Assembly: GCA_002162875.1 (NCBI GenBank)
Contig: MABA01000025.1
Location: forward strand, 1 to 64,000
DNA length: 64,000 nt
Source: Rhodobacterales bacterium 52_120_T64
GTDB lineage: Bacteria; Pseudomonadota; Alphaproteobacteria; Rhodobacterales; Rhodobacteraceae
Direction of reading: 5' to 3'
Below the pieces are notes generated by a model. The model searched no databases. It was not told the DNA's origin and worked only from the letters and a program-made list of their open reading frames with translations. This document shows, piece by piece, positions 46,929-62,466 of the stretch (its first letter is position 1; every line of letters begins with the position of its first letter). The translations under genes were made by a program, and so were the position numbers.

Positions 46929-47025
46929 GATATTCTCCCAGAAATCTGGCCCACACATTTACTGGGCAAGGATAAATTTTGGATGGCCAAGTTTAACTGG
47001 CCACCCAAGTTGTCTTTGATTGTGG

Positions 47026-48033
47026 TTATTCTGCAGCAATCAGATCTGCAGGTATGTCCAGACCCATTTCCAGGTAATAGCGCAAGGCCCCAGCATGCAG
47101 CGGAACAGGAAGTCCGCCGACGGATTTTTCAATCGCCATTGCATTTGTGGCCGGATGGATGGCCTGCAAAAAGCCCAAGTTTTCATAAAGGGCTTTGGTC
47201 AACAGATAGACATGTTCTTCATCCACGCTTTCGTTCACCGCCAAAAAGTTGGGCTGAGCGATCGTGCTCACATCGCTAGTTTGACCCGGGTATGTGCCTG
47301 CAGCAATTGTGTAAGGCACCCAAAGTTTGCGGCCGCCATCCATTGCAGTTGCCTGCTCAGCCGTGACGTTTAGAATAGTGAATTTCCCCTCGTTTGATGC
47401 CATCAACTTGGTAATCGCACCGGTTGGTGGACCTGATGGCATGCCTGCGCCCACAGCCTGGCCGTTGGCCAAGGCGTCAACAGTTGGGCCATATCCGGCA
47501 AAAACCAAGTCATAATCACTGTCAATGTCCACCCCAAGTCCACCCATCAACACAGTGTTAGATCCCAGCGTACCTGAATTCTGCTTGCCCATTCCTATGG
47601 CCATGCCTTTGACCGCAACCAAATCACCGACTGTGCCGGTGTTTACATATTCGTTGGATAGTAAGAACTGCTCAACGTTTTGCCACAGCATGGTAATAGA
47701 TCGGATGTTTGGCTGTGGTGCAGAAATAGGACCGGTGCCGGTGGCAGCATAAGACCCGTAAAGACCCTGCAAAATCGCAAAATCAGCGGTCCCAGCACCG
47801 AGCGCCTGAACATTCGCACCGGAGCCCGCCGAGTTAACCGCCGTCAGGCTGAATTTTTCCGTAGGCAACAATTTTATTTTCGACAACGTCGAAATCGCAG
47901 TACCCACAGGGTGATATGTGCCCCCTGTTGAAGCAGTGTTAAGCACGTAATCCGTGGATTGAGATGATGCTGTAGATGCGCTCATTGCCAACACAACTAG
48001 TGCTACGGCCACATTCTTGGTAAATTTAACCAT
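47026..48033 (-). CDS. TAXI-family TRAP solute-binding protein
   Basis: A 335-residue periplasmic binding protein. Signal peptide to ~residue 25 (VALVVLAMSASTASSQS). The mature start YVLNTASTGGTYHPVGTAIS is the TAXI family signature (substrate recognition of amino-acid or dicarboxylate-like ligands). It is first in the TRAP operon; the leader (48034-48210) contains no clear -24/-12 promoter, in agreement with the altered regulator. Confidence 0.92.
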   Translation of the reverse strand: MVKFTKNVAVALVVLAMSASTASSQSTDYVLNTASTGGTYHPVGTAISTLSKIKLLPTEKFSLTAVNSAGSGANVQALGAGTADFAILQGLYGSYAATGTGPISAPQPNIRSITMLWQNVEQFLLSNEYVNTGTVGDLVAVKGMAIGMGKQNSGTLGSNTVLMGGLGVDIDSDYDLVFAGYGPTVDALANGQAVGAGMPSGPPTGAITKLMASNEGKFTILNVTAEQATAMDGGRKLWVPYTIAAGTYPGQTSDVSTIAQPNFLAVNESVDEEHVYLLTKALYENLGFLQAIHPATNAMAIEKSVGGLPVPLHAGALRYYLEMGLDIPADLIAAE

Positions 48034-48212
48034 TTGTTTTCCTCCCTTTGAAAGCGCGCCGGTTGAATCCGACCGCTAGCCCGGTTTTTACATTTTTTAG
48101 ATTGTGTTGAATATGAACATATCCGCAGGATGGTTAGTCAAAGGCTTGCGGTTTTTCGCATAGGGCATTGTTACGAATCGTCGAGTGTCTGCTCGATACA
48201 ATGCGCGAACCC

Positions 48213-48345
48213 GGCACTGTCGGGCAAAACTTAGTTGAAGAAGGTAGTTGGCACTTAGCGTCGCCGGATGACAAAACCGAGCCCATTTCCGCTATTTCAA
48301 AACTTCGCCCGAGATCACTCCTCTTGCCGTGATGTTGTTTGTTGG
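48213..48345 (+). mobile_element. IS6-family remnant, third copy
   Basis: An inverted end GGCACTGTCGGGCAAAAC at 48213 is followed by TTAGTTGAAGAAGGTAGTTG, TCGCCGGATGACAAAACC and a degraded transposase start (MTKPSPFPLFQNF then frameshifted). The order and spacing match the end of the IS6 copy at 41148 reading on the opposite strand. Only about 130 bases survive. Confidence 0.75.
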
Positions 48346-48598
48346 AGAAGTTAAAGTTCGAACTTCCAGGACGATTACTGACACCGGCCCAAGAAGGCGG
48401 ACTTCAGAAACCTTCGGCGCAAGTTGCATATTTTCGCTTCGCTTGCATCTTAGACATTGGTCCGAGTCCGCATAGTTGCCGTTGAGGACCCATGTTACCC
48501 CAACTTGGAGTCTATGTCCGCTTTTGGTAAGCCATGCGTATCATTTCGCATCTGCAACAAATGTCTCTTTCCCGCCCTAAGTGACCGAGTCTGCTTCC
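48346..48598. other. Non-coding spacer
   Basis: No convincing gene. The open frame across 48457-48669 looks like random sequence. Nothing regulatory was recognised. Confidence 0.35.
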
Positions 48599-48822
48599 GA
48601 CCTATTCTGTTGAAAAACCCCAATATTTGGATTTCGAAAATTTCCACCAAAAGCATATCTTTGCTGTAACTCATTGAGGATTGCCACGAAAGGCTCCAGG
48701 GAGCCGTAACAACGCATAAAGCCCATTTTAGCCGAAACCCTCGCCAAAATTCTCATCCAGCTCTGTGCAGGGAAATATTTTCCGATTTTGACTGAAATCG
48801 GAGTTTTTCAACAGAATAGACC
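48599..48822. mobile_element. MITE-like element or IS end piece with inverted ends
   Basis: CCTATTCTGTTGAAAAACCCC at the left (48601) and, on the other strand, GGTCTATTCTGTTGAAAAAC reading in from 48822 form inverted termini around ~220 bases. The minus-strand interior is open without a start (SWMRILARVSAKMGFMRCYG), which may be the tail of a transposase or chance. Too small to encode a transposase. Confidence 0.5.
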
Positions 48823-48927
48823 CTAAGCTCCCTTTCACGACTACAACTTGATGCTGCGGTGCGGCCCGTCATTCCGGACATTCGCATGTATTGAACGAAT
48901 GTCTGCTTCAAACCAGCGACGCTACTA

Positions 48928-49545
48928 CTATTCCTCCACCCAAAAACGATCGCTCGCCTTGCCACGAGATTTGAGGATCCGCTGTACGACTGCGTCGCTC
49001 CCGAAGACTTCGACCGGATCAAATAAAAATTTTTGAAAGGTCATCTTGCTTATCCCTGCATCGTCGAGAGCTTCCTGGGCCGCATTCAATTTGACACTAA
49101 AGTTCTCCTGCATGAACTTGATGGCTAACGGAAGCATGCGTTCTAGACATTCAAGCGTTTCACGATTCCAAGTTGTTTCATTGGTTGCTGCTGCGGGTAT
49201 CCACTGCCCAGTCCCATTGGGCACAGCAAACAGAGATACCTTGTGCCAAACCCGAGTTCCCATTTTGTGCTCAGGATTTACGTGGGCCAGAGCTTGGTTT
49301 CGAAGCATGAGGAGAGCACTATGATCTTCTTTTTGGTCTTTCGTTAATTGTCTTTTGTTCAACTGAATTGAGCCTCGCTCTCCAAGCTTTCCGCCAGTTG
49401 ATGTTGCGCGAACATACAAGCTAACGGCGGTCGTTTGGAGCGCTTTGACAGTTGTTTGCTCTTTAGGCCCAAACGTTTCACCTTTCTCGTCCACCTTGGC
49501 TCTAAGGATTTTGCAACAGTCACTTGCTTGTAATAGGTCACCCAA
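48928..49545 (-). CDS. Hypothetical protein in IS-rich region
   Basis: A protein of ~205 residues with normal composition but no family I can name. A central block SALLMLRNQALAHVNPEHKM resembles the LRNQALAH-type motif seen in AbiV- or HEPN-like proteins, which is a weak hint only. The C-terminal half is helical with DRFWVEE at the end. The start is unclear: the TTG at 49545 lacks a good ribosome site, and the frame runs on upstream to about 49590, so the 5' end may be lost. Confidence 0.45.
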   Translation of the reverse strand: MGDLLQASDCCKILRAKVDEKGETFGPKEQTTVKALQTTAVSLYVRATSTGGKLGERGSIQLNKRQLTKDQKEDHSALLMLRNQALAHVNPEHKMGTRVWHKVSLFAVPNGTGQWIPAAATNETTWNRETLECLERMLPLAIKFMQENFSVKLNAAQEALDDAGISKMTFQKFLFDPVEVFGSDAVVQRILKSRGKASDRFWVEE

Positions 49546-50132
49546 ACATGCTTCAGCACGCCATGCTTGGACGAGAAGATTATTTAGTTTTTTTGTTTAT
49601 TGGTTCGATTAAGGCTCTTGGAAAGTGCTAGAAGATCAACGAATGGCGGGTAATTCATATAACACTTCCTTATGCTTCTTACTATTTGATGCAGCATATA
49701 GCACAAAATCAAGTCCGTAGCTTTGGTTGTCCAACCTTAATTCGGTTTTGGGCACTTGCGGCACTGTTTTGAATGGCCGCAATGACGGCTCGAAGTTACC
49801 ATAGAACACCGAAAAGGACTTGGGTGTTGTCCGAGCGTCCGCTTCTCTAATTGAGTGCTTAGGTCAAGCTCTTTTTCCTTTGTTTAATCGGGTCATTGTC
49901 TCTCATCCGGGTCACGCTTCTCTCCGCAGTCTGGTTGATGCCGTGATGGCATCGCTGCATGCATGTGTTGGATTGGCTGTGGAGAGCCCCGCTTTCCGGC
50001 GCGCTTCAAGATGCGCAGCAGACATTTTCGGCTTCATCTATTACCTGACAGGGCATGTTTACATGCCCGAGAGGGCACAAACCTCGTCCAGTGAGGACGA
50101 CCCCGTTAGGATTCGGTGGGTGGCGTTTTAGA
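49546..50132. other. 587-base stretch without a clear gene
   Basis: A plus-strand frame at 49820-50131 has poor coding character. The right part borders the IS110 transposase and probably belongs to that element's non-coding end. No RNA gene was recognised. Confidence 0.35.
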
Positions 50133-51170
50133 TCATGCCGTTCCCCCCACCTGTTCCTGACGGAATTCTGTACCATCAATCCACATGCGGTGCATTAGGA
50201 CAGCCAACTTGCGTGCAACCGCAACAACTGCTCGGCGTCGCCCTTTTGTGCGCATCAGCCGCATACCCCAAGATTTGATCTGTGAGCCTGCCATCGTTCG
50301 CATGAGCAGCGCATTTGCGGCAGCGTATAGCGCCGCGCGGACATCTCGATCCCCAGCCTTTGATATACGGCCAGGATTATCGCGCTCCCCGGATTGGTAT
50401 CGTCGGGGCGTAAGTCCAAAATGTGCCCCAACAGTGCGAGACCGCTTGAATCGTGTAGGATCATCAACGGCACTTTTAAACGTCAGTGCTGTAATGGGAC
50501 CAACCCCTGGAATAGTCATCAATCTCATACAGACCACATCGTGGCTTGCTGCACGGTTGACCCGTCGATCCAGTTCGAGGAAATGCTGATAGAGTATCAC
50601 CCTTGCATCGAGCAGAGGCACAAGGGCGTGTGCCAGAACATCGTCTATTAGGATCATTGGTCTGACGACATCATCAAAGCTGCCATGCTTCACAGTCTTG
50701 GGCAGACGGATACCGAAGATTTTCAACAATCCACGGACTTCGTTTGCAAGGTCCATCGTTTTCTTCAGAAGTGCCTTTCGCGCACTCAGCAGCGCGCGAT
50801 TGCCATGGGCTTCGCGGCTCTTCATATGAACCGGGCTGAACCAGCCGGTGCGCAGAACATGCGCGATTCCCCGGGCATCATTCTTATCGGTCTTGTTTCT
50901 CATCGCCGACAGGGCCGCGTTCACTTGTCGCGCTTCCATGCAAACGACATCAAAACCTGCAGCCTCCAGTCCAAAGTAAAGGTGCTGGCTCATCGTCCCC
51001 GCCTCAAAGCCGACACGCTCAATCGGGAACGCGCAATCAGAAAGGCACTCTACAATGTCATCAATCTCGCAAGCCAGCTCACGTTCAAGAATAACATTGC
51101 CCTTCGTATCAACGATGCAAAGTGCACATGACCGAAGTGATACATCTAGTCCAACAAAGTAATCCATCAT
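50133..51170 (-). CDS. IS110-family transposase, full length
   Basis: A 345-residue transposase. The N-terminal DEDD domain starts YFVGLDVSLRSCALCIVD and includes DKNDARGIAHVLRTGWF; the C-terminal transposase_20 domain has MTIPGVGPITALTFKSAV and GLTPRRYQSGERDNPGRISK. The frame is intact. IS110 elements have no clear inverted repeats, so the ends cannot be placed. Its insertion next to the Hsp70-like operon may have removed genes that once followed it. Confidence 0.94.
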   Translation of the reverse strand: MMDYFVGLDVSLRSCALCIVDTKGNVILERELACEIDDIVECLSDCAFPIERVGFEAGTMSQHLYFGLEAAGFDVVCMEARQVNAALSAMRNKTDKNDARGIAHVLRTGWFSPVHMKSREAHGNRALLSARKALLKKTMDLANEVRGLLKIFGIRLPKTVKHGSFDDVVRPMILIDDVLAHALVPLLDARVILYQHFLELDRRVNRAASHDVVCMRLMTIPGVGPITALTFKSAVDDPTRFKRSRTVGAHFGLTPRRYQSGERDNPGRISKAGDRDVRAALYAAANALLMRTMAGSQIKSWGMRLMRTKGRRRAVVAVARKLAVLMHRMWIDGTEFRQEQVGGTA

Positions 51171-51271
51171 CTATCTCCCTTGTTCACAGCTATCCTGTGA
51201 TCTTAGTGGGAACTCGGCCTAAAAGCGAAAGGCAGCCCAATTACGCATGCTTCCCGCCCTAAGTACCTACG

Positions 51272-51395
51272 GCTTGAGGTGGCGTTGAGGTAACGCGAAT
51301 AATAGTGATCATACAATCTTAAGCTGCAAGTTGTTGATAAGGGCTTATCCAGCAGCCCAAAAATCCCAAACCAGCCGTTCAACTTTACCGCCCCA
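51272..51395 (+). repeat. Dispersed ~120-base repeat, copy 2
   Basis: CTTGAGGTGGCGTTGAGGTAA is followed by ATCATACAATCTTAAGCTGC, GGGCTTATCC and CCCAAACCAGCCGTTCAACTTTAC, matching 40708-40830 in order. It lies just 5' of the IS110 transposase. The rest of 51171-51559 has no gene. Confidence 0.6.
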
Positions 51396-51559
51396 ATGCC
51401 AGCAACCGGCGGTGGGCTCAACTGATCTCTGCAGCCCGTCATTGCAGACGTAGAGCGTGCAGCATTTTGGGTCGATTAAGCTCTGTGTACGTCAGAAGTC
51501 AGTTTTCAAAAAAATAGAGTTTCACAAATTTGTGGCAGTATTTTGACGAAGCTTTGGCA

Positions 51560-53197
51560 TCACTGATGCGGACTTGTGTAAACCGGAAGTAGTGCCTTCT
51601 CCCCTGGATCGACGATCCCCTCGCTAATGCTTCTAATCTGAGTAGGAAGTGAAGGAAGTGCCCCTCCCACGGCTACGGCCAACTGTGAATAAACCGGCAT
51701 CAAAGATGGATAGGAGGGCTTTAAGTCATCAGGCATTGCATCGCGAAGCTTTAGCTGAATGTTTCGTCTGCCTTTTCTCAACGGCTCCGCTATAAGGAAG
51801 TCTATGACTGGGAGGCGCGACCCACCTCCCGTAGGGACCAAGAATACTGTTCCTTCAGAGCCTGAAACCAAAAATGCTGCTTCTGCAACGATCTCTTTGA
51901 TGTCACCAAACAGCTTCTTCATTGGTTGGGATTCTAAGAAATTATCAAGCTCAATTTCTATAGTTTCCCCTGTTGCAAGTGGCACAACAACGAACCCATC
52001 ATTGAAAAGAGACTCCTTCAGAGATCGAACAGATTTCCGAAGGATTTGGCGAGTTCGTTCATATTCTGTTGTGCCGCGGGCAAGTGAGCACTCTTCGAAG
52101 ATTACCTTAAGCAACGCGCTATCAATGATATTGCCTGCTCGATTGAGAGCTTTCGCGGCAGGCGTTACTTCTGCGACTCGGACCTGATCGCTTCTCGGGT
52201 CATTTATGCAAATACAACCGGCCACGTCCGTAGTGCCTGCGCCAATATCAAGAATTACGAATGCCTGGCGCTTGCCGGGATCAGTTTCCATCAGGGCGCC
52301 AGCACCGGCAGCAGTTGCTTCACGAACTGAGTCTTTAAGCAGCTCAAAGGGAAGAGCTTCAGTTGCTGTCTCTCTGGCGGCAATTGCAAGTTTTTGTGCG
52401 CGATCGACTGAAGTCTTTTCCGCAAAGTCACCAGGAAACAGATGTGCCAATGCTACTGCTTCAGCCATAATTCTGGCCATGGCTTCACCATTGGCTTTCT
52501 CAGATGATTTTTCCCATGCCGGATGCGCATATCGCCTCAAGATATCAATTGAGTGGCCGCTATCCTCTAACGAAATACTGACCATCCGATTTAAGTGCGC
52601 TAAGTAGAGTACGAGGACGTCTCTTTGACTAAAGCTCTGGGAAGCGTCCTGTTCCGAGCGAAGTGGCTTTTGATTGAGTTCCGCAACGTCCGTTCCGAGT
52701 GTCATATACTGCTTTGGGTTATCGATAAGACGATCTTGGCTGGCCTCAACAAGGTTAAACTTGCGCCGTGCCGTGGCACCAAAATGAATTTCGCCACCAT
52801 GAATGAAAATTTCTGACGGCAGCAGAAATTGAGGTTGCCCACTTTCGTCCTTACCGAATGTTACGTCTATAAGCTTAGGAACTTCATCTGAATCATCCCC
52901 TTCACAAACAAAGGCTTTCGAGAAGGATGTCCCAAAATCTAGGCACAACATTGTGCTCTGATCGGGCTTGTCACTCGGATGCCAAACGACTTTCGGCGTA
53001 AATGGAGGTGTTTCTGGCGCAATTACTAGCGATGCCTCAATATCCGTCTGCGTTTGTCCCTTAGTATCTCCCTGCTCTGGACCGAACAGCTCCTGAATTG
53101 CAGCAAGCTCGGCCGAGGTAAGAACTACTGGACCACCTGCTCCGGTTGCACGCTCGCAAAGGCTAGACAAAATCAGACCTGCAGTACTTTTATCCAT
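51560..53197 (-). CDS. Hsp70-like ATPase without substrate-binding domain
   Basis: A 545-residue actin/Hsp70-fold ATPase. An N-terminal extension of ~80 residues (unlike DnaK) precedes phosphate-1 motif CLDFGTSFSKAF (86-96), phosphate-2 motif VILDIGAGTTDVAG (314-327) and the adenosine motif LVPTGGGSRLP (453-463). The protein ends shortly after YSQLAVAVGGALP near 530, where DnaK would carry ~200 residues of substrate-binding and lid domain. It overlaps the stop of the GrpE-like partner by one base (TAATG). ATP-driven regulation of another protein is inferred; defence or plasmid-like partition roles are possible alternatives. Confidence 0.82.
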   Translation of the reverse strand: MDKSTAGLILSSLCERATGAGGPVVLTSAELAAIQELFGPEQGDTKGQTQTDIEASLVIAPETPPFTPKVVWHPSDKPDQSTMLCLDFGTSFSKAFVCEGDDSDEVPKLIDVTFGKDESGQPQFLLPSEIFIHGGEIHFGATARRKFNLVEASQDRLIDNPKQYMTLGTDVAELNQKPLRSEQDASQSFSQRDVLVLYLAHLNRMVSISLEDSGHSIDILRRYAHPAWEKSSEKANGEAMARIMAEAVALAHLFPGDFAEKTSVDRAQKLAIAARETATEALPFELLKDSVREATAAGAGALMETDPGKRQAFVILDIGAGTTDVAGCICINDPRSDQVRVAEVTPAAKALNRAGNIIDSALLKVIFEECSLARGTTEYERTRQILRKSVRSLKESLFNDGFVVVPLATGETIEIELDNFLESQPMKKLFGDIKEIVAEAAFLVSGSEGTVFLVPTGGGSRLPVIDFLIAEPLRKGRRNIQLKLRDAMPDDLKPSYPSLMPVYSQLAVAVGGALPSLPTQIRSISEGIVDPGEKALLPVYTSPHQ

Positions 53198-54630
53198 TAT
53201 TCAGAAACCTCGACTTTAAGTATCAACATCTTAGGTCTGCCGGGCTCCGACCTGAATGCTCCCGGCGTGACCACACGAACTTTTGAGCCAATAGTCAATT
53301 TATCATCTCCCTGATGAATAGCAGGGTCATAGGAAATGGTGTCTCCCCGCTCACCGACAAGTTCAACGTATCTGCTGCGCGCAATCGCTCGAGCCCACTG
53401 ATTTACCTGTGCCAGTCTTGCTGCGGCCATCGAAACTATAGCGGCTTCTTCCGGCATTAAATCTTCCACCCGTTCGGCGGCAAATGTAAGTGACTTAGAG
53501 CTTGCCTCTGGCCCACTCGACGAAACCAAAAGGCGACCGATGTATTCGTCCAGCCGGGTAGAGCTCAGCTGATCAATTGCTTCCGTCGTTCGTCGTTCCT
53601 CAAGCTCACGGCCTGTAACAAGCCAATGTGAGATGTTTTCCTCAAGACTACTGTCTTCAGCTGTTATAGCTCGAGCCAAGTTTTGTATATTATCGGCACC
53701 CGTGCTTTGAACTAAGGCATTTCTCAGTGGACTATTCTGGACGCCTTGGCGCGCAAAAATATGTAGCGCTTCCATTCCGGCTTTTGCCAGACGACGTATC
53801 GCTTGCTCAAGTTGTAGAGGAGGCGATGCAGGAACCCACCATACTTTAACATCGGAAGCAATGAGGTAGACGGCGGGGTCAGAACCAGCCGAAAAGTTCA
53901 ATCTCACAATACGATGTAGTGAATTTACAATTTCCACTGAAAATGCGGCGCGCAGGTCCCTATCTTCTGGTCCTTGTTTGCCAAATGGTCCAGTAAAGAA
54001 CTTTTTTAATTCTATTCCATACCCAGTTCCTGAAGGGATGTCGCTAGTTATCAAAGGTTCTAGAATGGTGGAGCCAATGCGTCTCATTCTACGCGCGAGT
54101 GCGTCAGCATTCATGGCTTCAATATCGGCATTATCAGAAAGCTGTGCATTCACCTTTTTTAGAAATTCTTCTTTGGAAAGTGATTTATCCAACGCAATTT
54201 TTAGCCAGACATTTCTGGCCTTTTCGGCGACATCTTCTCCGACGAGTTCCTTGAACGCTCTGACAACGATCTCTTCTGTCGACCCGAACTTCAATGCCTT
54301 TGCAAGATAATATCGATCTTCACCATCAGGTAATGCAGTAAACTCGGGACCTCCCTTCGATATTAAATCTAGGATAATTGGCTTCAGTTCTTTTTCTGCA
54401 GGTTTTGAAACACTTGCTGCCCTACCCAAATATGATAATGCGAGCCAATAGTTTTCAACGTCGGTTTGGTTTGAGGTATCTAAGAGCGCCGAGCGTGCTC
54501 TTGAGAACTCCATGGACGCCAGGAATTCTTTTGTTAGCCGTCGTTCCTGCACGACAGTTCTAAGCAGATGAATCGCCCAAATTTCGGGCGAATCAGTTTT
54601 GTTAACGGAGTTTGATGTATCGCTGTTCAT
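53197..54630 (-). CDS. Unknown partner with GrpE-like C-terminal end
   Basis: A protein of ~477 residues from the ATG at 54630 (a TTG at 54654 is in frame; neither has a clear ribosome site). Most of it is helical with repeat-like segments (ENYWLALSYLGRAAS; DRYYLAKALKFGS) and no known domain to me. The last ~50 residues change to beta-type: ISYDPAIHQGDDK then IGSKVRVVTPGAFR...LILKVEV. That resembles the GrpE end (FDP..HEAV, then a beta-wing with RPGYR..VLR.A.V), the part that opens Hsp70 ATPases. Paired with the Hsp70-like gene, a nucleotide exchange or co-chaperone role is inferred. Confidence 0.72.
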   Translation of the reverse strand: MNSDTSNSVNKTDSPEIWAIHLLRTVVQERRLTKEFLASMEFSRARSALLDTSNQTDVENYWLALSYLGRAASVSKPAEKELKPIILDLISKGGPEFTALPDGEDRYYLAKALKFGSTEEIVVRAFKELVGEDVAEKARNVWLKIALDKSLSKEEFLKKVNAQLSDNADIEAMNADALARRMRRIGSTILEPLITSDIPSGTGYGIELKKFFTGPFGKQGPEDRDLRAAFSVEIVNSLHRIVRLNFSAGSDPAVYLIASDVKVWWVPASPPLQLEQAIRRLAKAGMEALHIFARQGVQNSPLRNALVQSTGADNIQNLARAITAEDSSLEENISHWLVTGRELEERRTTEAIDQLSSTRLDEYIGRLLVSSSGPEASSKSLTFAAERVEDLMPEEAAIVSMAAARLAQVNQWARAIARSRYVELVGERGDTISYDPAIHQGDDKLTIGSKVRVVTPGAFRSEPGRPKMLILKVEVSE

Positions 54631-54654
54631 GGCATACGATAGACCATGATCCAA

Positions 54655-54988
54655 ATGCGCCGCAAGATGGTGCGTTGGGAAACGACTGCATTTTCGTCAC
54701 ACGTGGGAGCACTGAACTATGCGGCTAGTTACACGGTGATTCGGACGATGATTAGTTTTCAAGCCTAGGGACGTTTCAAATACAACAATTTGAAGGTCTG
54801 CTTTTGTTGATCTGAAATTTTGACCATGCATCCGCCGAGAATGTCAACTGTCCGCCCTTTCCGACGCCCATTTTTTCCGGCTGAACGTCTGGCTTTTAAT
54901 TGGCAGGCCAGTTCTCGCACCGATCGGAAATAACGGCTAGCAGATCGACCTACATTTTCAATCCAATCATCGCCAACCCATAAAACAC
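54655..54988. other. Intergenic region between the Hsp70-like operon and the integrase
   Basis: Divergent promoters for both sides should lie here. A minus-strand frame at 54765-55052 is rich in Arg and Gly and is probably not a gene. No tRNA or obvious att core was found. Confidence 0.35.
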
Positions 54989-55044
54989 AGGGGTGGCACG
55001 CCCCTCTGCCTTTCACCGCCACCCTGCGCCACCCCGCCACCCCT
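54989..55044. promoter_or_regulatory. GGGGTGGC/GCCACCCC element ahead of the integrase
   Basis: AGGGGTGGC (54989-54997) faces a 28-base block at 55017-55044 with three GCCACCC units. The identical 28-base block stands at 57331-57358. Both blocks end about 70 bases before a start codon (55113 and 57431), so they look like a shared operator or regulatory element of the mobile element. Confidence 0.6.
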
Positions 55045-55112
55045 CTCTTCATGCTTCACTTGATAAAGGCGCGATTCTACGCCTGTGTGAAGTCTGATTG
55101 GAGGTGCAACTC

Positions 55113-56372
55113 ATGCCCAAGCGAATACGATTGAACGAAAAATCAGTACGGGAGGCCCCGCTGATAAAAGGTCGGGACTATCAGGTGTTTGACACCGAGG
55201 TACGTGGCTTTGCTATATGCATATACCGCTCCGGCAACCGGGCTTTTACGCTCGATTACCGCAGCGCTGGGCGTCAGCGTCGGATGACCATCGGGCGCTG
55301 GCCGGAATGGAGCACGACGGCAGCCCGCGACCGCGCCAAGGAACTGCGGCGCGAGATTGATGCCGGTGCCGATCCGCTCGGTAATCGGGAACAGGGTCGC
55401 GATGCTCCCCGTTTCAAAGATCTGATTGATCGGTATATTGAAGAACACCTGCCGCATTTGGCCCCAACCAATGCATCGGACCAAAAGTCCATGCTGCGTA
55501 AACTTGTTGAGCCTGATTGGGGCAATCGCCTTGTTGCCGACATCACCTCATCCGACGTGGAAAAGCTGCTGACCAAGATCGCCGCAGGTCGCGCCCGCCC
55601 CTCGAAAGCCAAACCGAACAATCGCGCCCGTAAATTACAGGGATCAAAACCCACACCGATCCGCGCCAACCGGACCGGCGAGGTGCTCCGAAAGATGTTC
55701 ACCCTTGCTGTTGGCTGGAAGTGGCGGGCCGATAATCCCGCCTCGGGTTTCCGGCGCCGCCTGGAAAACGAGCGCGAGCGTTTCCTATCCAAAGAAGAAA
55801 TCGGCAAGCTGGCCGAAGCCTTAGATCGCGCCGAGGATCAGCGCGCCGCCACCATCATCCGAATGTGCCTTCTAACCGGCGCGCGCGTCGGCGAAGTTCG
55901 CCAAGCCCGGTTCGAGCATTTTAATCTGGAACTCGGCAGCTGGTCCAAGCCGGCCACCACCACCAAGCAGCGCAAAATCCACCGCCTGCCAATATCGGAC
56001 GAGGTGGGCACTATCGTGCGGCAACGTCAGCTGATTGTGCCGAGTGGCATCCCCTGGCTGTTTCCGGGCGACGTGCCCGGCCAACCGGTGATCGAAATCC
56101 GGCGGTTCTGGCGCTCCATCCAGAAGAAGGCAGATTTGGAGGATGTGCGCATCCACGATCTGCGCCACACTTTTGCATCGCTGCTGGTTAGCGGCGGGGC
56201 TTCGCTGGAAATGATCGGCAAGTTGCTGGGCCATTCGCAGCTGAAAACAACCCAGCGCTATGCCCACCTAATGGATTCACCCCTGCGCGCTGGCGTTGAC
56301 GCTGTTGCCGACGCGTTCCGGCCGCGCCCGAAGCTTGTGCATGATTCCGACGGGGATCGAAAAAGCGCATAA
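55113..56372 (+). CDS. Tyrosine recombinase (phage-type integrase)
   Basis: A 419-residue integrase starting at the ATG at 55113 (ggaggtg upstream; the ATG at 55098 is a weaker choice). N-terminal arm-binding DUF4102 domain (DTEVRGFAICIYRSGNRAFT), a core-binding helix domain, then the catalytic domain with Arg in LLTGARVGEVRQAR, HDLRHTFASLL (His and Arg), LLGHSQLKTTQRYAHL (His and the Tyr nucleophile). All catalytic residues are present. It converges with the gene at 56388. It is the likely mover of the 55-62.5 kb block. Confidence 0.94.
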   Translation: MPKRIRLNEKSVREAPLIKGRDYQVFDTEVRGFAICIYRSGNRAFTLDYRSAGRQRRMTIGRWPEWSTTAARDRAKELRREIDAGADPLGNREQGRDAPRFKDLIDRYIEEHLPHLAPTNASDQKSMLRKLVEPDWGNRLVADITSSDVEKLLTKIAAGRARPSKAKPNNRARKLQGSKPTPIRANRTGEVLRKMFTLAVGWKWRADNPASGFRRRLENERERFLSKEEIGKLAEALDRAEDQRAATIIRMCLLTGARVGEVRQARFEHFNLELGSWSKPATTTKQRKIHRLPISDEVGTIVRQRQLIVPSGIPWLFPGDVPGQPVIEIRRFWRSIQKKADLEDVRIHDLRHTFASLLVSGGASLEMIGKLLGHSQLKTTQRYAHLMDSPLRAGVDAVADAFRPRPKLVHDSDGDRKSA

Positions 56373-56387
56373 TCCGTTGCGCTTGTA

Positions 56388-56984
56388 TTAACAGGGATCC
56401 CGCAGCGCCTTCCAGATCGGGTTAAGCCTTCGGCGGATGGTGCGCTCGTCCGGCACTTCTCCGGTCTTTGAGCGCGCAATAAACCATTTCTGCATCTCTC
56501 CGACCCATGCGGCCTGTGTCGAGGGCACCCCTTGATCATGCACCCGCTGGATTAGGGCGAGATACATGCCGTCCCAGTCATATTTTGCGGATGAACCAAT
56601 GTGCGCAGCCGGACGTTGCAACAGGTTGCATTCCTCCTCGAACCGGCGGACCTGATCAGCCATGATCACCAGATCCTCGAGAGTAGTTGTAATCCCGTTC
56701 GCCGGCTCCGTAACCACGGACCAGTCTTGGGCGCCAATCCCCCGTATACGGCGCAGATGCCCATGAGACGGACCCGTGCCATTTCGGCGAAACATCGGCA
56801 GGATGTCAGCGACCGAGACAGTCACAAACCCCGCCAGAAGCGCCTCGCCGCATTGGGTGGGCCCGATCCCGATAACGATGTCGAACCGGCCGACAGAGGC
56901 CCAACCTGCGATATCCGACAGGCTGCAATCCCAGCGCACTGCGGCCTCGAAAAGTGAATAATATGCCCTTGGTGGTAAACCCAT
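56388..56984 (-). CDS. Hypothetical mobile-element protein
   Basis: A 198-residue protein of unknown family. The first ~80 residues (RAYYSLFEAAVRWDCSLSDI and GRFDIVIGIG) look like a small N-terminal DNA-binding module of the type that precedes a MerR-like helix; the C-terminus (KWFIARSKTGEVPDERTIRR) is basic. It ends 15 bases from the integrase stop and is transcribed towards it, divergent from the excisionase-like gene. A repressor or regulator of the element is possible, but not shown. Confidence 0.6.
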   Translation of the reverse strand: MGLPPRAYYSLFEAAVRWDCSLSDIAGWASVGRFDIVIGIGPTQCGEALLAGFVTVSVADILPMFRRNGTGPSHGHLRRIRGIGAQDWSVVTEPANGITTTLEDLVIMADQVRRFEEECNLLQRPAAHIGSSAKYDWDGMYLALIQRVHDQGVPSTQAAWVGEMQKWFIARSKTGEVPDERTIRRRLNPIWKALRDPC

Positions 56985-57188
56985 CCTTGCTCTGCCTTCC
57001 TGTGTAACTAATGCGCGAAACCTTCTTTTTCTCGAGGTTTTTGCACAGTTTTAAATTCGTGGCCCAACGCATCCGGACACGACCAAACCCTCCGCAGAAC
57101 AGCGGTTTCAATCGACGTTTAAATGACGTGAGCTATCCCGTAATTCGGTCATCGCACCCCGATTCTACAAGCGAACAATTCGGCATTT

Positions 57189-57203
57189 GTTCTACTATTG
57201 TTC
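57189..57203. promoter_or_regulatory. LexA-type SOS box (GTTC-N7-GTTC)
   Basis: GTTC (57189-57192), tactatt, GTTC (57200-57203) is the exact alphaproteobacterial LexA pattern. TTGACG follows at 57204-57209 and could be a -35 element, though a good -10 is not clear. GAACAA at 57174 and TTGTTC at 57187 also form an inverted pair. Placed between two divergent genes, it suggests control of the element by DNA damage. Confidence 0.65.
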
Positions 57204-57302
57204 TTGACGCGAATTACATCGCGATTCGCCCGTCAGTTGTCGGGCGCGGCTAACGCCCATCTCCGTGCCAAACGCATCAAACTCCTCAAAGCCCATAAAA
57301 TA

Positions 57303-57358
57303 AGGGGTGGCATGAGGGGTGGCGAATGAACGCCACCCTGCGCCACCCCGCCACCCCT
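57303..57358. promoter_or_regulatory. GGGGTGGC/GCCACCCC element ahead of the excisionase-like gene
   Basis: Two AGGGGTGGC units (57303-57311, 57315-57323) face the 28-base GCCACCC block at 57331-57358, which is identical to 55017-55044. The following leader sequences (cttcatgctt and gttcatatgctc) are also similar. See the matching element ahead of the integrase. Confidence 0.6.
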
Positions 57359-57430
57359 GTTCATATGCTCTGTGCAGTTCACCGACATCGGCCCGCACAA
57401 ACCCGTGCTCGCGATGCAAAGGGGACAGAC

Positions 57431-57676
57431 ATGAAACCAATCGGAATAGGTACACAGGAACACTCCAAAGCTCTGCTGGCGGGGTGGATCAGCCGCAAGG
57501 AACTGGCAGGCGAGCTCGACCTTGCCGTCGATACATTGGCGCGCTGGGAGGCACGGCGCGTTGGGCCGCCTTGTGTGCGTGCCGGGCGAAAAGTGCTCTA
57601 TCGACGTAGCGCCGTGCAGGACTGGCTGCAGGCACAGGAAATGCCGCGCGCCAAAAAAGCAGGTGGCCGGCGATGA
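57431..57676 (+). CDS. Excisionase/MerR-like helix-turn-helix protein
   Basis: An 81-residue protein with a MerR-type winged helix (WISRKELAGELDLAVDTLAR then WEARRVGPPCVRAGRKVLYR), typical of helix_turn_helix_17 excisionases and phage regulators. The ATG at 57431 follows aaaggggac. Its stop overlaps the next start (ATGA). As the first gene of the lower operon beside an integrase, it is the best excisionase candidate; it may also be a transcription regulator. Confidence 0.82.
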   Translation: MKPIGIGTQEHSKALLAGWISRKELAGELDLAVDTLARWEARRVGPPCVRAGRKVLYRRSAVQDWLQAQEMPRAKKAGGRR

Positions 57677-57942
57677 GTGGCCGCAAGATGCTTGCAGAGA
57701 GCGGCTCTGCTGCGCTGAAACAATCCCACCCACCGGAATGGCATGCGGATCGCCTCAGCGAGGCACGTGGCATAGTCGCCGATGTGGCGCACCACCCCGA
57801 CACGCTGGTTCTGCTGGCCTGTAGAGTGATTTGCGCCCACAGCCTTGATCCCTTTGAACGGGTCGAGGCGCTGGGCTTGATACGTATTCTGGCGACCTCG
57901 ACGCCCAACGCCTCGCCGTCCCGTGTTGGAGGTGCGTCATGA
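57673..57942 (+). CDS. Hypothetical phage/element protein
   Basis: An 89-residue protein of unknown function, helical in the middle (SEARGIVADVAHHPDTLVLL), with ATGA-type overlaps at both ends (excisionase-like gene and HTH replication gene). Such overlap means strong coupling to replication functions. No motif assigned. Confidence 0.7.
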   Translation: MSGRKMLAESGSAALKQSHPPEWHADRLSEARGIVADVAHHPDTLVLLACRVICAHSLDPFERVEALGLIRILATSTPNASPSRVGGAS

Positions 57943-58898
57943 GCCACCACGGAACCAACTGGGCCATCATTCAGCGCGGGCTAAAACCCACCACAAGGAT
58001 CGTACTCTGGCACCTCTGTGATCGCCATAATCCCGACTATGGATGCTTCCCGACGCAGGCGCGTTTGGCGCACGATTGCGAGATTAGTCGCTCGACCCTG
58101 AACCTGCATCTAATCCGCCTCGAGAGTGCCGGTTTACTCCGCCGCATGACGCGCATTAATCCGGTATCAAAGCGGCAAATGTCGACGCGGTACTTCCTCG
58201 GATTCGAGGATGATTATCCGACAAAATCCGGGGGCAAAACTCCGGATCCTGAACCTCAATATGCCGAAAAGCCGTGTCTTGTTTCCGGACACGGAGCCGT
58301 GTCCGATTTAGAGCCAGAGCCGTGTCCGAAAAACAGCGATTACCGTGTCCTAAATTCGGACACTAACCCTGTAAGAGAACCTTTAAGAGAACCAGTAAAG
58401 GAGAAGGAGGAGCGCGCGGGGGCGCGAGATGGCTTTTTTGAGGAGTTTTTTGGCGAATTACTGAAAGCGCTGGGCTTCGATCCGAAGGGCGTTTTGCCGG
58501 CCTGGTGGCAGGGCCAATCCGCCAAGGCGAACGTGCGACGCTGGGGGGATGATCTCGGGCTAGATGAGGGCCAGATCCTCGAGGTTGCCGCAGAGACCCG
58601 AGGCAAGCACCCCACCCCGCCTGACGGCCCCAGAGCGCTCGATCGAGCCATGGAACGGGCCGCAGTGCGCCACAGGAGTCCACCTGACGGGGTATCGGGA
58701 TCAAAACGATACCGAGGGAGGGGTCGGACCCAGACGGACTCACGCGCAAGCCTGGAGCGGCAGTTGGAGTTTTACTCCGGCATGGTGAATTTCGACAAAT
58801 ATTTGCCCCAAAATATGATCAGCAGCGGCATGTGCGACGCGATGCTGGCGCATGGGCTTGTTACGCCAGAGCGGCTCCAGATGCGGGGTGTGCTATGA
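57939..58898 (+). CDS. HTH replication protein (phage replisome-type)
   Basis: A 319-residue protein with an N-terminal HTH_36 winged helix (LKPTTRIVLWHLCDRHNPDY and CEISRSTLNLHLIRLESAGL), as in phage replication organisers and plasmid initiators. A variable linker rich in Glu and Lys (about residues 95-170) precedes a C-terminal region resembling a replication loader (WWQGQSAKANVRRWGDDLGL). It likely recognises an origin, which may lie within the gene; no iterons were checked. Overlaps both neighbours by 4 bases. Confidence 0.78.
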   Translation: MSHHGTNWAIIQRGLKPTTRIVLWHLCDRHNPDYGCFPTQARLAHDCEISRSTLNLHLIRLESAGLLRRMTRINPVSKRQMSTRYFLGFEDDYPTKSGGKTPDPEPQYAEKPCLVSGHGAVSDLEPEPCPKNSDYRVLNSDTNPVREPLREPVKEKEERAGARDGFFEEFFGELLKALGFDPKGVLPAWWQGQSAKANVRRWGDDLGLDEGQILEVAAETRGKHPTPPDGPRALDRAMERAAVRHRSPPDGVSGSKRYRGRGRTQTDSRASLERQLEFYSGMVNFDKYLPQNMISSGMCDAMLAHGLVTPERLQMRGVL

Positions 58899-59542
58899 CC
58901 GTGCACAGACGCGTTAAGCCCAACACCCGTCAAAAACGCGCGCTGGGCGTACAGGCAATTCTGGAATGGGCGTTTCGGGTGGAAAAGGCCCAACTGGAAT
59001 TACTCCCACCCAAAAACGCTGGGGAAGAAAGCTCCGGATTTGGCATGGAATACGTTCTGATCCAGCGCGCCCAACTCGGATGCAAGATTGATGGTGGTCG
59101 GTACAAAATGGGCAGCTACACCCACGTGGACGCCGAGGTTGTGGCGGCCACGCTTGCTGGTATGCCTGACGCGCTGGGCGGGATCCGCATGGCTATTCGT
59201 GTGGCGGATCTCGCACGCGCCGGAATGACACCGGACTGGATGCCCAACACCGTGCCGCGTTGTGTGCCGATTGAGGTTCGGCGGAACCAGCATGGCGAGC
59301 GGGCTGTGACCGAGGTCATTGGGGTTGAGGGGGTGCAATATCGCGGCCGCTGGCGAATGGTTGAAGTTCTGGCTTGTCCGGTGACATGGTCGCCGCATCC
59401 GCAGCAGATCGAGAGTGCTCGGCACGCTTACGTCGATTGGTGGCAGGCGCTGGGCTGGGTGCGTGAGGGGTTGCTTGAGGGTGGGATGTTGCTGGATTTG
59501 GAGGTGACGGAGGCGATGCCGAGGGGGCAGTCATGGGGGTGA
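58895..59542 (+). CDS. Hypothetical phage/element protein
   Basis: A 215-residue protein starting at the ATG at 58895, which overlaps the upstream stop; the in-frame ATG at 58832 would lie inside that gene. The sequence is compact and alpha/beta, with RRVKPNTRQKRALGVQAILE at the start and WSPHPQQIESARHAYVDWWQ in the C-terminal third. It is often seen as a conserved hypothetical in this type of prophage, but I cannot give a function. Confidence 0.75.
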   Translation: MTVHRRVKPNTRQKRALGVQAILEWAFRVEKAQLELLPPKNAGEESSGFGMEYVLIQRAQLGCKIDGGRYKMGSYTHVDAEVVAATLAGMPDALGGIRMAIRVADLARAGMTPDWMPNTVPRCVPIEVRRNQHGERAVTEVIGVEGVQYRGRWRMVEVLACPVTWSPHPQQIESARHAYVDWWQALGWVREGLLEGGMLLDLEVTEAMPRGQSWG

Positions 59543-59708
59543 ATTGCAAGATTGGAAAATTGTATATGTCGGCGCACAACGTAACTGAAGCGTTGCGGAA
59601 AAGTGCTTGAAAACTCGATTGAAACGGGAATTCAACTTATTGGGGGTTTGCCCGTGAAGGTAACTCTGATCTATTCACTTTCGAGCAGACTCGGACAGGA
59701 TCGATGCA
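59543..59708. other. Intergenic spacer before the restriction gene
   Basis: About 165 bases with no gene. A promoter for the restriction gene should lie here; no clear -35/-10 pair was identified. Confidence 0.3.
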
Positions 59709-60695: not shown

Positions 60696-60725
60696 TGGCC
60701 GGCGTTCATCAAGATGGTAACTGGC

Positions 60726-61193
60726 TTACGCCTCGGAATTTCCACGAATATCGGAGGTTTTCCATTCAGACGATACAATAAAATTCTTGATGCTGTCATC
60801 CAGTGTACTTGCCTTTAGTGCGGTCCTGCCTTTCAGAGCACATTCCCGGATCAAAAGGACCCGCCAACCCAGAACAAGGATCTGTGCCTGTTTCAGCTTG
60901 TCGCGCTCGATGTTCCCCGAAATTTTCTGCTCCCAGAATTCCGTCCTGCTCTTGGGAAGCCGAAACAAATGACAGTTCTCGTGCCCGTGCCAGAAGCAAC
61001 CGTGAACGAATATGGCCACCTTGTATTTGGGCAAAACAATATCGGGCTTTCCAGGGAGGTCTTTGCGGTGCAGCCGGAATCTGAACCCCGCAGCGTGCAA
61101 CATTTTGCGAACCTGTATCTCGGGCTTCGTGTTCTTGCCGCGGATACCGGCCATCATCCGGCTCCGCTTCTCCGGGCTAACGATGTCAGCCAC
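60726..61193 (-). CDS. vsr: Very-short-patch mismatch endonuclease (Vsr)
   Basis: A 155-residue Vsr. It nicks 5' of T in T:G mismatches that arise from deamination of 5-methylcytosine. Family blocks are MADIVSPEKRSRMMAGIRGK at the start, FRLHRKDLPGKPDIVLPKYK (with the metal-binding Asp), and VHGCFWHGHENCHLFRLPKS with the zinc ligands (His, Cys). Length is usual for the family. It overlaps the methyltransferase stop by 8 bases, so both are made together. Confidence 0.95.
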   Translation of the reverse strand: MADIVSPEKRSRMMAGIRGKNTKPEIQVRKMLHAAGFRFRLHRKDLPGKPDIVLPKYKVAIFVHGCFWHGHENCHLFRLPKSRTEFWEQKISGNIERDKLKQAQILVLGWRVLLIRECALKGRTALKASTLDDSIKNFIVSSEWKTSDIRGNSEA

Positions 61194-62466
61194 TGTTGCC
61201 CGTCCCGCCGTTTTTGATCGCAGGTGTTTCGGCGAGATGCGGAAGCATCAGGTTGGCAATTTCGCGGATCACCGGAACCGAAACCGAGTTACCGAATTGT
61301 TTGTAGGCTTGCGCATCAGAGACAGCATTAACGTTGAACTCCTCCGGAAAACCCTGAATACGGGCACATTCCCGCGGCGTCAGTTTTCGCGGGTTCCGGC
61401 CGAGTTCGGACTGGCCTATCAGGATTTCGCTACCATCCTTGTAATAGCGTGCACTGATGGTATTGCAGTAGGGGCTCTCCGTATTGAACAGGCTGAACCC
61501 GAAACCGTTACCCTTGGCTTTATGCTCTTTCAGACGGCGCTCGTGGCCCGCAAGCAACCTGTCGGAAATGGTGTATTTTGGATCAACGTCACCGTTTGCT
61601 TCGAGGATATCACCCAGCCGGGTCTTCGACTGCAACGTTTCCAATTCGTCGAAAATTGCTCCAACATCGACATCGGGAACAAGGCCGCGCTCGAACCCGA
61701 TGATGTAAATGCGTTCGCGTTTTTGTGGAACGCCGAAGTTGTTCGCTCGCAAGACACGGAAATCCACGTTGTAGTCGAGTTTGGTACCGAGACCACGACG
61801 GGCTTCTTCCGACATCGGGATATCAGATGGAATTTCGGGAACGGTTTCCCCTCGAAGGGTCGAGAGGATCGTTTGCAGCGTGCGGCCGCAATCATGGCCC
61901 TTCAGCTGTTTAACATTCTCCAACAGGAATGCTTTGGGCCTGTGAGCTGCAAGAATTCTCTGGATCTCGAAAAACATTGTGCCACGTGTGTCGTTGAAAC
62001 CCTGCTTTAAACCAGCCTGGGAAAAGGCCTGGCATGGAAACCCTGCCAGCAATACGTCATGCTTCGGAATATCGGCAGTGGGAATTGTTGTGATATCACC
62101 ATCTGGCAGCTCACCAAAGTTCGAGGCGTAGGTTTTCTTGGAAAACTTGTCCCACTCCGAGGTGAACACGCACTTGCCACCGACCTCCTGGAAAGGCAGG
62201 CGAATCCCGCCTATACCCGCAAAGAGGTCGATAAAACGGAACGTGTGATTTCTCCGGTTATTCCTGAACGGAATGTTGACGTCGAGCGAGTGGATAAGCT
62301 CGGCCTTTGAATTGGAAGGTCTGTGTTCTCCCCGTTCCCAGCCGCTGATTGTTCGCTCGCCCGAGGGTCCCATTCCCAGAAACTCTGCAAATTCCCTCTG
62401 GTTAAGGCCCAGCGCCTCCCGCTTTTGACGTATAGTGTTCGAAAGGGACTGTAATTGGTCAAGCAT
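61186..62466 (-). CDS. DNA (cytosine-5) methyltransferase with N-terminal HTH
   Basis: A 426-residue C5-methyltransferase. Residues 1-65 are a lambda-repressor-type helix-turn-helix (LGLNQREFAEFLGMGPSGER), probably used to control its own promoter. Then motif I FRFIDLFAGIGGIRLPF (~75-90), motif IV AGFPCQAFSQAG with the catalytic Cys, motif VI FLLENVKQL, motif VIII/IX region with PQKRERIYIIGF, and motif X near the C-terminus (QFGNSVSVPVIREIA). It protects the host DNA against the partner endonuclease; the resulting 5-methylcytosine explains the adjacent vsr. Confidence 0.95.
   Translation of the reverse strand: MLDQLQSLSNTIRQKREALGLNQREFAEFLGMGPSGERTISGWERGEHRPSNSKAELIHSLDVNIPFRNNRRNHTFRFIDLFAGIGGIRLPFQEVGGKCVFTSEWDKFSKKTYASNFGELPDGDITTIPTADIPKHDVLLAGFPCQAFSQAGLKQGFNDTRGTMFFEIQRILAAHRPKAFLLENVKQLKGHDCGRTLQTILSTLRGETVPEIPSDIPMSEEARRGLGTKLDYNVDFRVLRANNFGVPQKRERIYIIGFERGLVPDVDVGAIFDELETLQSKTRLGDILEANGDVDPKYTISDRLLAGHERRLKEHKAKGNGFGFSLFNTESPYCNTISARYYKDGSEILIGQSELGRNPRKLTPRECARIQGFPEEFNVNAVSDAQAYKQFGNSVSVPVIREIANLMLPHLAETPAIKNGGTGNSG

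What the first reader, a model, noticed from the sequence alone, without database searches (positions are those of the whole stretch)
51560..54630. Two-gene operon: lid-less Hsp70-like ATPase plus a partner with a GrpE-like end
The two genes overlap by one base. The ATPase keeps all three Hsp70/actin nucleotide motifs but lacks the substrate-binding and lid domains and carries an 80-residue N-terminal extension. The partner is mostly unrecognised helical sequence, but its last ~50 residues follow the GrpE pattern (YDPAIH then a beta-wing with TPG...LKVEV). An Hsp70 switch paired with its own exchange factor, without a J-protein or substrate domain, beside an integrase and an IS110, suggests an accessory, possibly defensive, signalling pair. 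It is the best candidate here for an undescribed system; function is inferred.
Basis: partly seen in the sequence, partly recalled or inferred. Interest (0 to 1): 0.72.

Follow-up and report, generated by a model that had tools for sequence, protein, structure and literature searches.

The report
Hsp70-type switch with GrpE-tipped partner
A mobile two-gene cassette in a bacterium encodes a stripped-down Hsp70-type ATPase and a helical partner that ends in its own GrpE-like exchange-factor domain; it matches an already catalogued but unexplained candidate antiviral system, PDC-M61.

Summary
Gene A (54630-53197, minus strand, 477 aa) and gene B (53197-51560, 545 aa) overlap by one base. B is an Hsp70-type nucleotide-binding domain without substrate-binding or lid domain. 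A is a predicted helical solenoid (about residues 14-342) followed by a GrpE-like domain (about 343-477), supported by a structural match to GrpE of the GrpE-DnaK crystal and a profile match better than all 300 shuffled controls. The system is not undescribed: PADLOC lists both proteins as PDC-M61A and PDC-M61B, a candidate phage-defence pair. No listed paper in my searches describes its mechanism. The pair is together at 7 of 7 clear loci; two distant B-like genes lack A. Window and a Sulfitobacter record share only the two genes plus about 80 bases upstream. Four of seven loci carry recognised defence genes nearby, from a hand-picked scan. It is rare: 3 of 394 genomes of the host's family, its own included. 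Best reading: a two-protein ATP switch whose solenoid senses something infection-linked and whose GrpE-like head sets B's nucleotide state. Architecture, pairing and mobility are shown; exchange, sensing and defence are inferred.

The parts
53197..54630 (-). Gene A, 477 aa, PDC-M61A: helical solenoid (about residues 14-342) plus GrpE-like C-terminal domain (about 343-477)
   Evidence: PADLOC PDC-M61A 4.9e-34; AlphaFold2 mean pLDDT 84.5; GrpE chain 1dkg_B, Z 7.6, rmsd 5.3, 107 residues aligned over model 343-477
53200..53604 (-). GrpE-like domain of A (codons of about residues 343-477): helices, a long helix 393-419, the (Y/F)DPxxH motif, then beta strands between 422 and 476 (wing)
   Evidence: Structure match; hhalign against 30 GrpE sequences, score 37.0, P 1.3e-5, maximum of 300 column shuffles 24.3, N-terminal part 13.9; D435, P436, H439, P456, G457 invariant in 7 of 7
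51560..53197 (-). Gene B, 545 aa, PDC-M61B: Hsp70-type nucleotide-binding domain (about residues 76-509), no substrate-binding or lid domain, N-terminal extension with predicted helices 3-19 and 28-38
   Evidence: PADLOC PDC-M61B 1.9e-75; DnaK 4ani_C Z 15.4, rmsd 10.2, 321 residues; profile score against DnaK NBD 69.9 over 328 columns
54631..54710 (-). Upstream stretch conserved with the Sulfitobacter copy L037, perhaps promoter and leader; no sigma-70 consensus reported there
   Evidence: DNA similarity with L037 covers window 51560-54710 only, 79 % identity; alignment; promoter scan
55098..56372 (+). Tyrosine integrase, divergent neighbour (context, not part of the conserved cassette)
   Evidence: PF00589 5.1e-24, PF13356 3.9e-15
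60726..62466 (-). C5-cytosine methyltransferase (61186-62466) and Vsr endonuclease (60726-61193) in the same region (context)
   Evidence: PADLOC MTase_II 5.8e-119, Vsr 2.6e-37
50133..51170 (-). IS110-family transposase (context)
   Evidence: PF02371 1.8e-23, PF01548 3.7e-16

Best explanation
The two genes form a complete two-protein ATP switch, a member of the candidate defence family PDC-M61. A's GrpE-like head docks on B's Hsp70-type nucleotide-binding domain and controls its nucleotide exchange. A's ARM/HEAT-like solenoid stands where ordinary GrpE has its long dimerising helices and serves as a receptor for a viral or infection-linked ligand, or for a host complex that infection disturbs. 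Ligand binding shifts B between ATP and ADP states, and the A-B complex then acts by gripping or blocking a target rather than by cutting nucleic acid. SHOWN: the two genes, their overlap, the predicted domain make-up, the pairing at 7 of 7 clear loci, and the exact cassette boundary against one relative. INFERRED: A-B binding, exchange activity, sensing and anti-phage effect.
For: PADLOC models for both proteins. AlphaFold2 model of A with mean pLDDT 84.5; its C-terminus matches GrpE from the GrpE-DnaK complex, the only one of the 50 rows shown that covers residues 343-477, while the other rows match the rest of the protein to ARM/HEAT proteins and designed repeats, among others. The profile match to GrpE lies only in C-terminal stretches: 37.0 for residues 345-477 and 36.8 for columns 361-485; 27.3 for columns 321-460, which hold part of the domain; at most 14.9 for windows ending at or before column 420; at most 12.9 for all windows of B; at most 24.3 in 300 shuffles; 14.4 reversed. 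B matches DnaK, Z 15.4, including DnaK chains solved with GrpE, and scores higher with the DnaK NBD (69.9 over 328 columns) than with MreB (51.3 over 184). Phosphate motifs invariant in 7 of 7, so ATP binding is likely. Pair present in 7 of 7 clear loci, overlapping by 1-8 bases or 9 bases apart. DNA similarity with L037 covers exactly the two genes plus about 80 bases. On the L038 contig the pair sits 547 bases after an aminotransferase-containing gene and 307 bases before a hydrolase gene, with no other ORF of 150 aa or more between, so two genes seem to suffice. A and B identities correlate at 0.97 over 21 non-independent locus pairs, one B being truncated. Recognised defence genes near 4 of 7 loci.
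Against: No wet-lab evidence. Pfam finds neither GrpE in A nor HSP70 in B for the window proteins with the limit set at E 10, though HMMER's filters drop most matches above about 0.1; B's best Pfam matches are DDR and MreB_Mbl, below cut-off. For the L041 homologue MreB_Mbl passes its cut-off (30.7 against 27) and HSP70 just misses (20.1 against 20.6). The GrpE structural match has Z 7.6 and rmsd 5.3 at rank 46, in the range the tool warns may be a common arrangement. The A-B complex was not modelled. The B model is mediocre (pLDDT 68.4), and MamK and MreB score within about 1 Z unit of DnaK. No effector domain was recognised. The PADLOC scan of relatives' neighbours used 10 ORFs that I picked from 3 of 6 relative loci, so 4 of 7 is not an enrichment test. 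Two distant B-like genes have no A nearby.
Confidence: 0.55

Rival explanations
1. Chaperone-cycle guard or hijacker: A's GrpE-like head acts on the host's own DnaK, with B as decoy or antidote, so infection by phages that need the DnaK system is blocked or detected.
For: A GrpE-like head could recognise other Hsp70 nucleotide-binding domains (inference); the host has its own GrpE and DnaK. A host chaperone can mediate phage sensing: DnaJ for bNACHT25 (PMC12169576, abstract and outline seen).
Against: A and B are paired at 7 of 7 clear loci and co-inherited, which points to B as A's natural partner; A is far diverged from GrpE (no Pfam match).
Confidence: 0.15
2. Accessory chaperone pair with a housekeeping or stress role and no defence function; its place in islands is passive hitch-hiking.
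For: On the L038 contig the pair stands among metabolic genes; short Hsp70-type proteins exist in the class sample and match B weakly, and the distant B-like genes L043 and L044 stand without a partner; PADLOC 'candidate' status is not proof.
Against: Very patchy distribution: 3 of 394 family genomes, and only the window's own genome among 289 class genomes at full length, 385 class genomes and 398 phylum genomes, samples that overlap; cassette-like transfer; mobile or defence neighbours at 5 of 7 loci.
Confidence: 0.2
3. Actin-like filament system: B polymerises like MreB or MamK and A is its nucleator or adaptor, for positioning or partition of the mobile element.
For: B's structural scores for MamK (14.8) and MreB (14.2) are close to DnaK (15.4); PF06723 passes its cut-off for the L041 homologue.
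Against: The partner carries a GrpE-like domain; profiles favour the DnaK NBD over MreB in local and global modes. No partition site was looked for.
Confidence: 0.07

Closest known systems
PDC-M61 (PADLOC-DB 2.0.0 candidate phage-defence system, proteins PDC-M61A and PDC-M61B)
   Same: Both proteins match their models over most of their length, as an adjacent pair.
   Different: The library output gives no description, and the text search for the name found 0 papers. The GrpE-like head and solenoid reading of A comes from this work.
GAP1-N2 GTPase-centred conflict systems with HSP70 and GrpE (Kaur et al. 2020, PMC7159879; 12 of 24 passages seen)
   Same: Conflict-system neighbourhoods with HSP70 and GrpE genes, a subset with a second protein that has only the HSP70 domain without its peptide-binding domain.
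   Different: Those are centred on GTPases with FNIII proteins fused to DnaJ or TPR, mostly in actinobacteria and firmicutes. Here the cassette has no GTPase, and the GrpE-like domain is fused to a solenoid.
CoCoNuT type III CnuD (PMC11090510; 12 of 14 passages seen)
   Same: Hsp70-like domains with HEAT-like repeats in restriction-type systems.
   Different: CnuD has both NBD and SBD, belongs with McrB/McrC homologues, and its Walker A-like motif is described as degenerate. Here there is no SBD, no McrBC in the cassette, and the phosphate motifs are intact.
GrpE nucleotide exchange factor (PF01025; 1dkg)
   Same: Helix, DPxxH motif and beta-wing at the C-terminus of A.
   Different: A is below PF01025 detection and carries a solenoid where GrpE has its long paired helices (the latter recalled).
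Short YegD-like Hsp70 proteins (name recalled; the sequences L003-L006 were read)
   Same: Hsp70-type nucleotide-binding domain, open frames of about 425-440 aa, without a substrate-binding domain.
   Different: No partner was looked for there; B is longer, with a partly conserved N-terminal extension.

Membership tests
PDC-M61 | Protein matching PDC-M61B | tested here: met
   1.9e-75, residues 74-520, model 115-563 of 588
PDC-M61 | Adjacent protein matching PDC-M61A | tested here: met
   4.9e-34, residues 35-470, model 37-474 of 482; three further M61A models also match
PDC-M61 | Protects against phage | not testable with these tools
   No experiment available; the library lists it as a candidate
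Hsp70 | Hsp70-type nucleotide-binding domain fold | tested here: met
   DnaK Z 15.4, rmsd 10.2, 321 residues, on a model of pLDDT 68.4; MamK and MreB within about 1 Z unit, so the fold alone does not single out Hsp70; profiles favour the DnaK NBD
Hsp70 | Passes the Pfam HSP70 (PF00012) cut-off | tested here: not met
   No HSP70 match listed for the window protein; homologues L041 (20.1) and L042 (14.8) fall below the cut-off of 20.6; the distant B-like genes L043 (32.3) and L044 (24.1) pass it
Hsp70 | Substrate-binding and lid domains | tested here: not met
   Protein ends about 36 residues after the matched nucleotide-binding domain
GrpE | GrpE beta-wing fold and motif | tested here: met
   1dkg_B Z 7.6, rmsd 5.3, 107 residues, model 343-477, a middling score; independent hhalign P 1.3e-5 with shuffle control
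GrpE | Passes the Pfam GrpE (PF01025) cut-off | tested here: not met
   No match listed for A; a PF01025 search of the genome gives one match, the host's own GrpE on another contig
GrpE | Nucleotide exchange on an Hsp70 | not testable with these tools
   Needs biochemistry
CoCoNuT / McrBC | McrB-type GTPase and McrC-type protein in the cassette | tested here: not met
   The conserved cassette holds only A and B, and neither has such a Pfam match; not every neighbouring ORF was scanned
GAP1-N2 GTPase systems | TRAFAC GTPase gene in the cassette | tested here: not met
   The conserved cassette holds only A and B, and neither has a GTPase match in Pfam

The most novel reading that the evidence does not exclude
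A minimal immune device in which the Hsp70 nucleotide cycle itself is both sensor readout and effector: a solenoid receptor carries its own exchange-factor head, so ligand binding directly resets a dedicated lid-less Hsp70 that then blocks the virus or a host process, without nuclease, second messenger or J-protein.
Probability: 0.25. Interest if true: 0.8.

Novelty: new member of a known kind. Interest (0 to 1): 0.5.

Why it matters
PDC-M61 is a catalogued candidate for which I found no explanation. Recognising a GrpE-like domain on one protein and an Hsp70-type domain on the other turns it into a testable biochemical proposal: an immune switch run by nucleotide exchange. The two genes also look like a complete, small, transferable unit, which makes it easy to clone and test. 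If confirmed, it would add chaperone-type exchange control to the known ways bacteria gate antiviral responses.

Tried and rejected
Rejected: 'undescribed system' (PADLOC models exist). No match on catalogued plasmids for A or B or in phage records for A (B was not searched there), at E 1e-5. The one viral-contig relative found is the same 37,505-base contig as L039. A single-sequence scan of viral contigs with B found no relative.

Rejected as false trail: matches of the M61B model in 34 other class genomes. Most cover fewer than 80 model positions around phosphate-2; a few run to 130-185. I first took them for FtsA; the four that I read (L003-L006) are short Hsp70-type proteins, and four longer ones (596-637 aa, lengths) were not read. 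Because that set was picked by similarity to M61B, its higher hhalign score with B (80.7 over 225 columns; 121.0 for the unfiltered set) was not used to rank families.

Led nowhere: the island ends. The flanking gene at 47026-48033 and that at 62886-63956 have no match at E 1e-50 in the 12 same-genus genomes searched, so no empty site could be shown. No tRNA was found in the window and no Rfam family over its gathering score in 46000-64000. Promoter- and terminator-like sites were about as many as in shuffles (4 against a mean of 3.7; 5 against 4.0). A's profile found no PDB sequence at E up to 10; B's found Hsc70 at 0.0016 and MreB at 0.0038. Catalytic residues beyond the phosphate and adenosine motifs could not be assigned: K162 aligns with a lysine of the short Hsp70 set but not with that of DnaK. 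Foldseek with the whole A model gave low-TM, mostly solenoid or helical matches.

Papers: search 9 (0 papers), 42 (6 listed of 7), 43 (15 of 26), 55 (1), 65 (3), 69 (9), 74 (12 of 89) and 75 (0). No listed title or abstract start describes this pair; bioRxiv and most subscription journals are not held.
Full report
WHAT IS THERE. Two genes on the minus strand, A (54630-53197, 477 aa) then B (53197-51560, 545 aa), share one base at the stop/start junction. Downstream lies an IS110 transposase (50133-51170); upstream and divergent lies a tyrosine integrase (55098-56372). Further along are a Vsr endonuclease and a C5-cytosine methyltransferase (60726-62466). G+C of A and B (47.1 and 49.1 %) is below that of the first 45 kb of the window (52.2 %) and of the integrase (59.5 %).

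WHAT THE PROTEINS ARE CALLED TODAY. Pfam lists no match for A and two weak ones for B below cut-off (DDR 0.0002, MreB_Mbl 0.032). NCBIfam gives nothing for A and three matches far below cut-off for B. PADLOC-DB 2.0.0 recognises both: B as PDC-M61B (1.9e-75), A as PDC-M61A (4.9e-34, 2.3e-29, 1.3e-16 and 3.6e-11 with four models). PDC stands for phage-defence candidate, M for multi-gene; this, and the link to work on candidates embedded in other defence systems, are recalled, not read. The text search for PDC-M61 found 0 papers.

PROTEIN B. The structure model (7 sequences, mean pLDDT 68.4) matches Hsp70 nucleotide-binding domains: Foldseek best E 1.5e-12; VIA-align DnaK 4ani_C Z 15.4, rmsd 10.2, 321 residues, model 78-509. 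MamK (14.8) and MreB (14.2) are close, so structure alone does not separate Hsp70 from its actin-like cousins. Profiles lean to Hsp70: against the nucleotide-binding parts of 22 PF00012 proteins the score is 69.9 over 328 columns (global mode P 1.2e-11); against 15 MreB proteins 51.3 over 184 (global mode P 0.57, no real alignment). Those sets were picked by motif and length from the loci (22 of 22 and 15 of 18 loci given) and not checked one by one. Pfam on homologues is mixed: L041 passes for MreB_Mbl and just misses HSP70, L042 passes neither, and the distant L043 and L044 pass HSP70. Phosphate-1 and phosphate-2 residues are invariant in 7 of 7. About 36 residues follow the domain. The N-terminal extension is partly conserved and may be a docking element (inference).

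PROTEIN A. The model (7 sequences, mean pLDDT 84.5, pTM 0.63) is helical to residue 419, then has beta strands between 422 and 476. Of the 50 VIA-align rows shown, 49 lie within residues 3-344, among them ARM/HEAT proteins and designed repeats (best Z 10.8; helical repeats match one another readily), and one covers 343-477: GrpE in the DnaK-GrpE crystal structure (1dkg_B, Z 7.6, rmsd 5.3, 107 residues, rank 46). By the tool's own note, Z below 8 can be a common arrangement, so an independent test was made. A's C-terminal alignment against 30 alphaproteobacterial GrpE sequences scores 37.0 (P 1.3e-5), aligning (Y/F)DPxxH with GrpE's FDPnxH. 300 column shuffles reach at most 24.3 and the reversed alignment 14.4. 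Windows of A ending at or before column 420 reach at most 14.9; window 321-460, which holds part of the domain, 27.3; windows of B at most 12.9. Two methods therefore agree that A ends in a GrpE-like domain. A PF01025 search of the genome gives one match, the host's own GrpE on another contig, so A is outside the Pfam family as defined.

PAIRING AND MOBILITY. One genome-contig scan with three B sequences returned 8 loci: six with clear B genes, one cut by a contig end (L037-L042), and two distant B-like genes in one Hyphomonadaceae assembly (L043, L044). A was found directly upstream in all six, and among no ORF of L043 or L044 at E 1e-3. Counting the window, that is 7 of 7 clear B genes with A; counting the two distant ones, 7 of 9. 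L035 and L036 are the same contigs as L038 and L039 by length and place, and L045 and L080 the same as L039, so they were not counted again. The genes overlap by 1 base (window, L037, L040), 4 (L042) or 8 (L038, L039), or are 9 bases apart (L041). DNA similarity between window 46001-64000 and L037 is one block, window 51560-54710, 79 % identity: both genes and about 80 bases upstream. On the contig of L038 the pair lies 547 bases after an aminotransferase-containing gene and 307 bases before an alpha/beta hydrolase gene, with no other ORF of 150 aa or more between; smaller ORFs were not listed. Two genes thus appear to be the whole unit. Pairwise identities of A and B correlate (r 0.97, 21 pairs, not independent; B of L040 is truncated).

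DISTRIBUTION. B: 3 of 394 genomes of the host's family; full-length M61B match in 1 of 289 class genomes (34 others have weaker, mostly short matches) and 1 of 398 phylum genomes at E 1e-12. A: 1 of 385 class genomes and, with another M61A model, 1 of 398 phylum genomes. In each of these counts the window's own genome is one positive, and the samples overlap. No match in plasmid records for A or B, nor in phage records for A.

NEIGHBOURS. Window: methyltransferase and Vsr. L037: AbiEi/AbiEii downstream, a PLD-like gene, a UvrD-like helicase. L041: PLD-plus-Snf2 helicase (C3a139, 5.3e-54). L042: C5 methyltransferase and PDC-M33A, B, C. L039: integrase, resolvase-type recombinase and Mutator-family transposase, on a contig that IMG/VR also holds. 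L038: metabolic genes. L040: contig ends inside B; one DUF2793 gene nearby. So 4 of 7 have a recognised defence gene and a fifth has mobile genes. I chose the 10 PADLOC-scanned ORFs from L037, L041 and L042 because they looked promising, and ran no PADLOC scan on the neighbours at L038-L040; this is context, not a statistic.

HOW IT MAY WORK. GrpE opens the Hsp70 nucleotide cleft with its wing (established for DnaK/GrpE, recalled; complex 1dkg). A has that head in place but carries a solenoid where GrpE has its long paired helices (recalled). Solenoids commonly bind proteins or peptides. The simplest reading is a receptor whose ligand state is passed by the GrpE-like head to B's nucleotide state. 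B has no substrate-binding domain, so classical refolding is unlikely, and no nuclease or other effector was recognised, so blocking or sequestering is more likely than cutting. None of these functional steps was tested.

COMPARISON. Kaur et al. [quoted passage not shown] CoCoNuTs (PMC11090510, passages seen) include Hsp70-like and HEAT-like parts tied to McrBC. DnaJ mediates phage sensing by bNACHT25 (PMC12169576, abstract and outline seen). No title or abstract start listed by searches describes this two-gene pair; two listed only 15 of 26 and 12 of 89.

VERDICT. A real, conserved, mobile two-gene cassette of the candidate family PDC-M61, with a clear and testable architecture. It is a new member of a listed but, as far as I could find, unexplained kind; the GrpE-like head on a solenoid is the new information.

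Noticed in passing
window 59709-60695 (+): A 328-aa protein without Pfam or PADLOC match at E 0.01 beside the Vsr and C5 methyltransferase genes; possibly the restriction enzyme of that system.
   Followed up: partly
L043:7974-9311 and L044:4650-6116: Two distant B-like, substrate-domain-less Hsp70-type genes in one Hyphomonadaceae assembly, without an A partner in the fetched DNA.
   Followed up: partly
L038 (JAHVJD010000005.1): Record titled Nocardioides marinus, but its contig has the length of one that the genome search places in the window's own family, and its A and B are 76 and 80 % identical to those of Alterinioella: the title looks wrong or the assembly mixed.
   Followed up: no
L042:11861-15353 (-): A PDC-M33A/B/C candidate defence cluster beside a C5 methyltransferase, near the M61 pair.
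   Followed up: no
window 47026-48033 and 62886-63956: Genes on either side of the region (NMT1_3-type binding protein; DUF4147/MOFRL protein) have no match in 12 same-genus genomes at E 1e-50, so the variable region may be larger than the stretch between them.
   Followed up: partly
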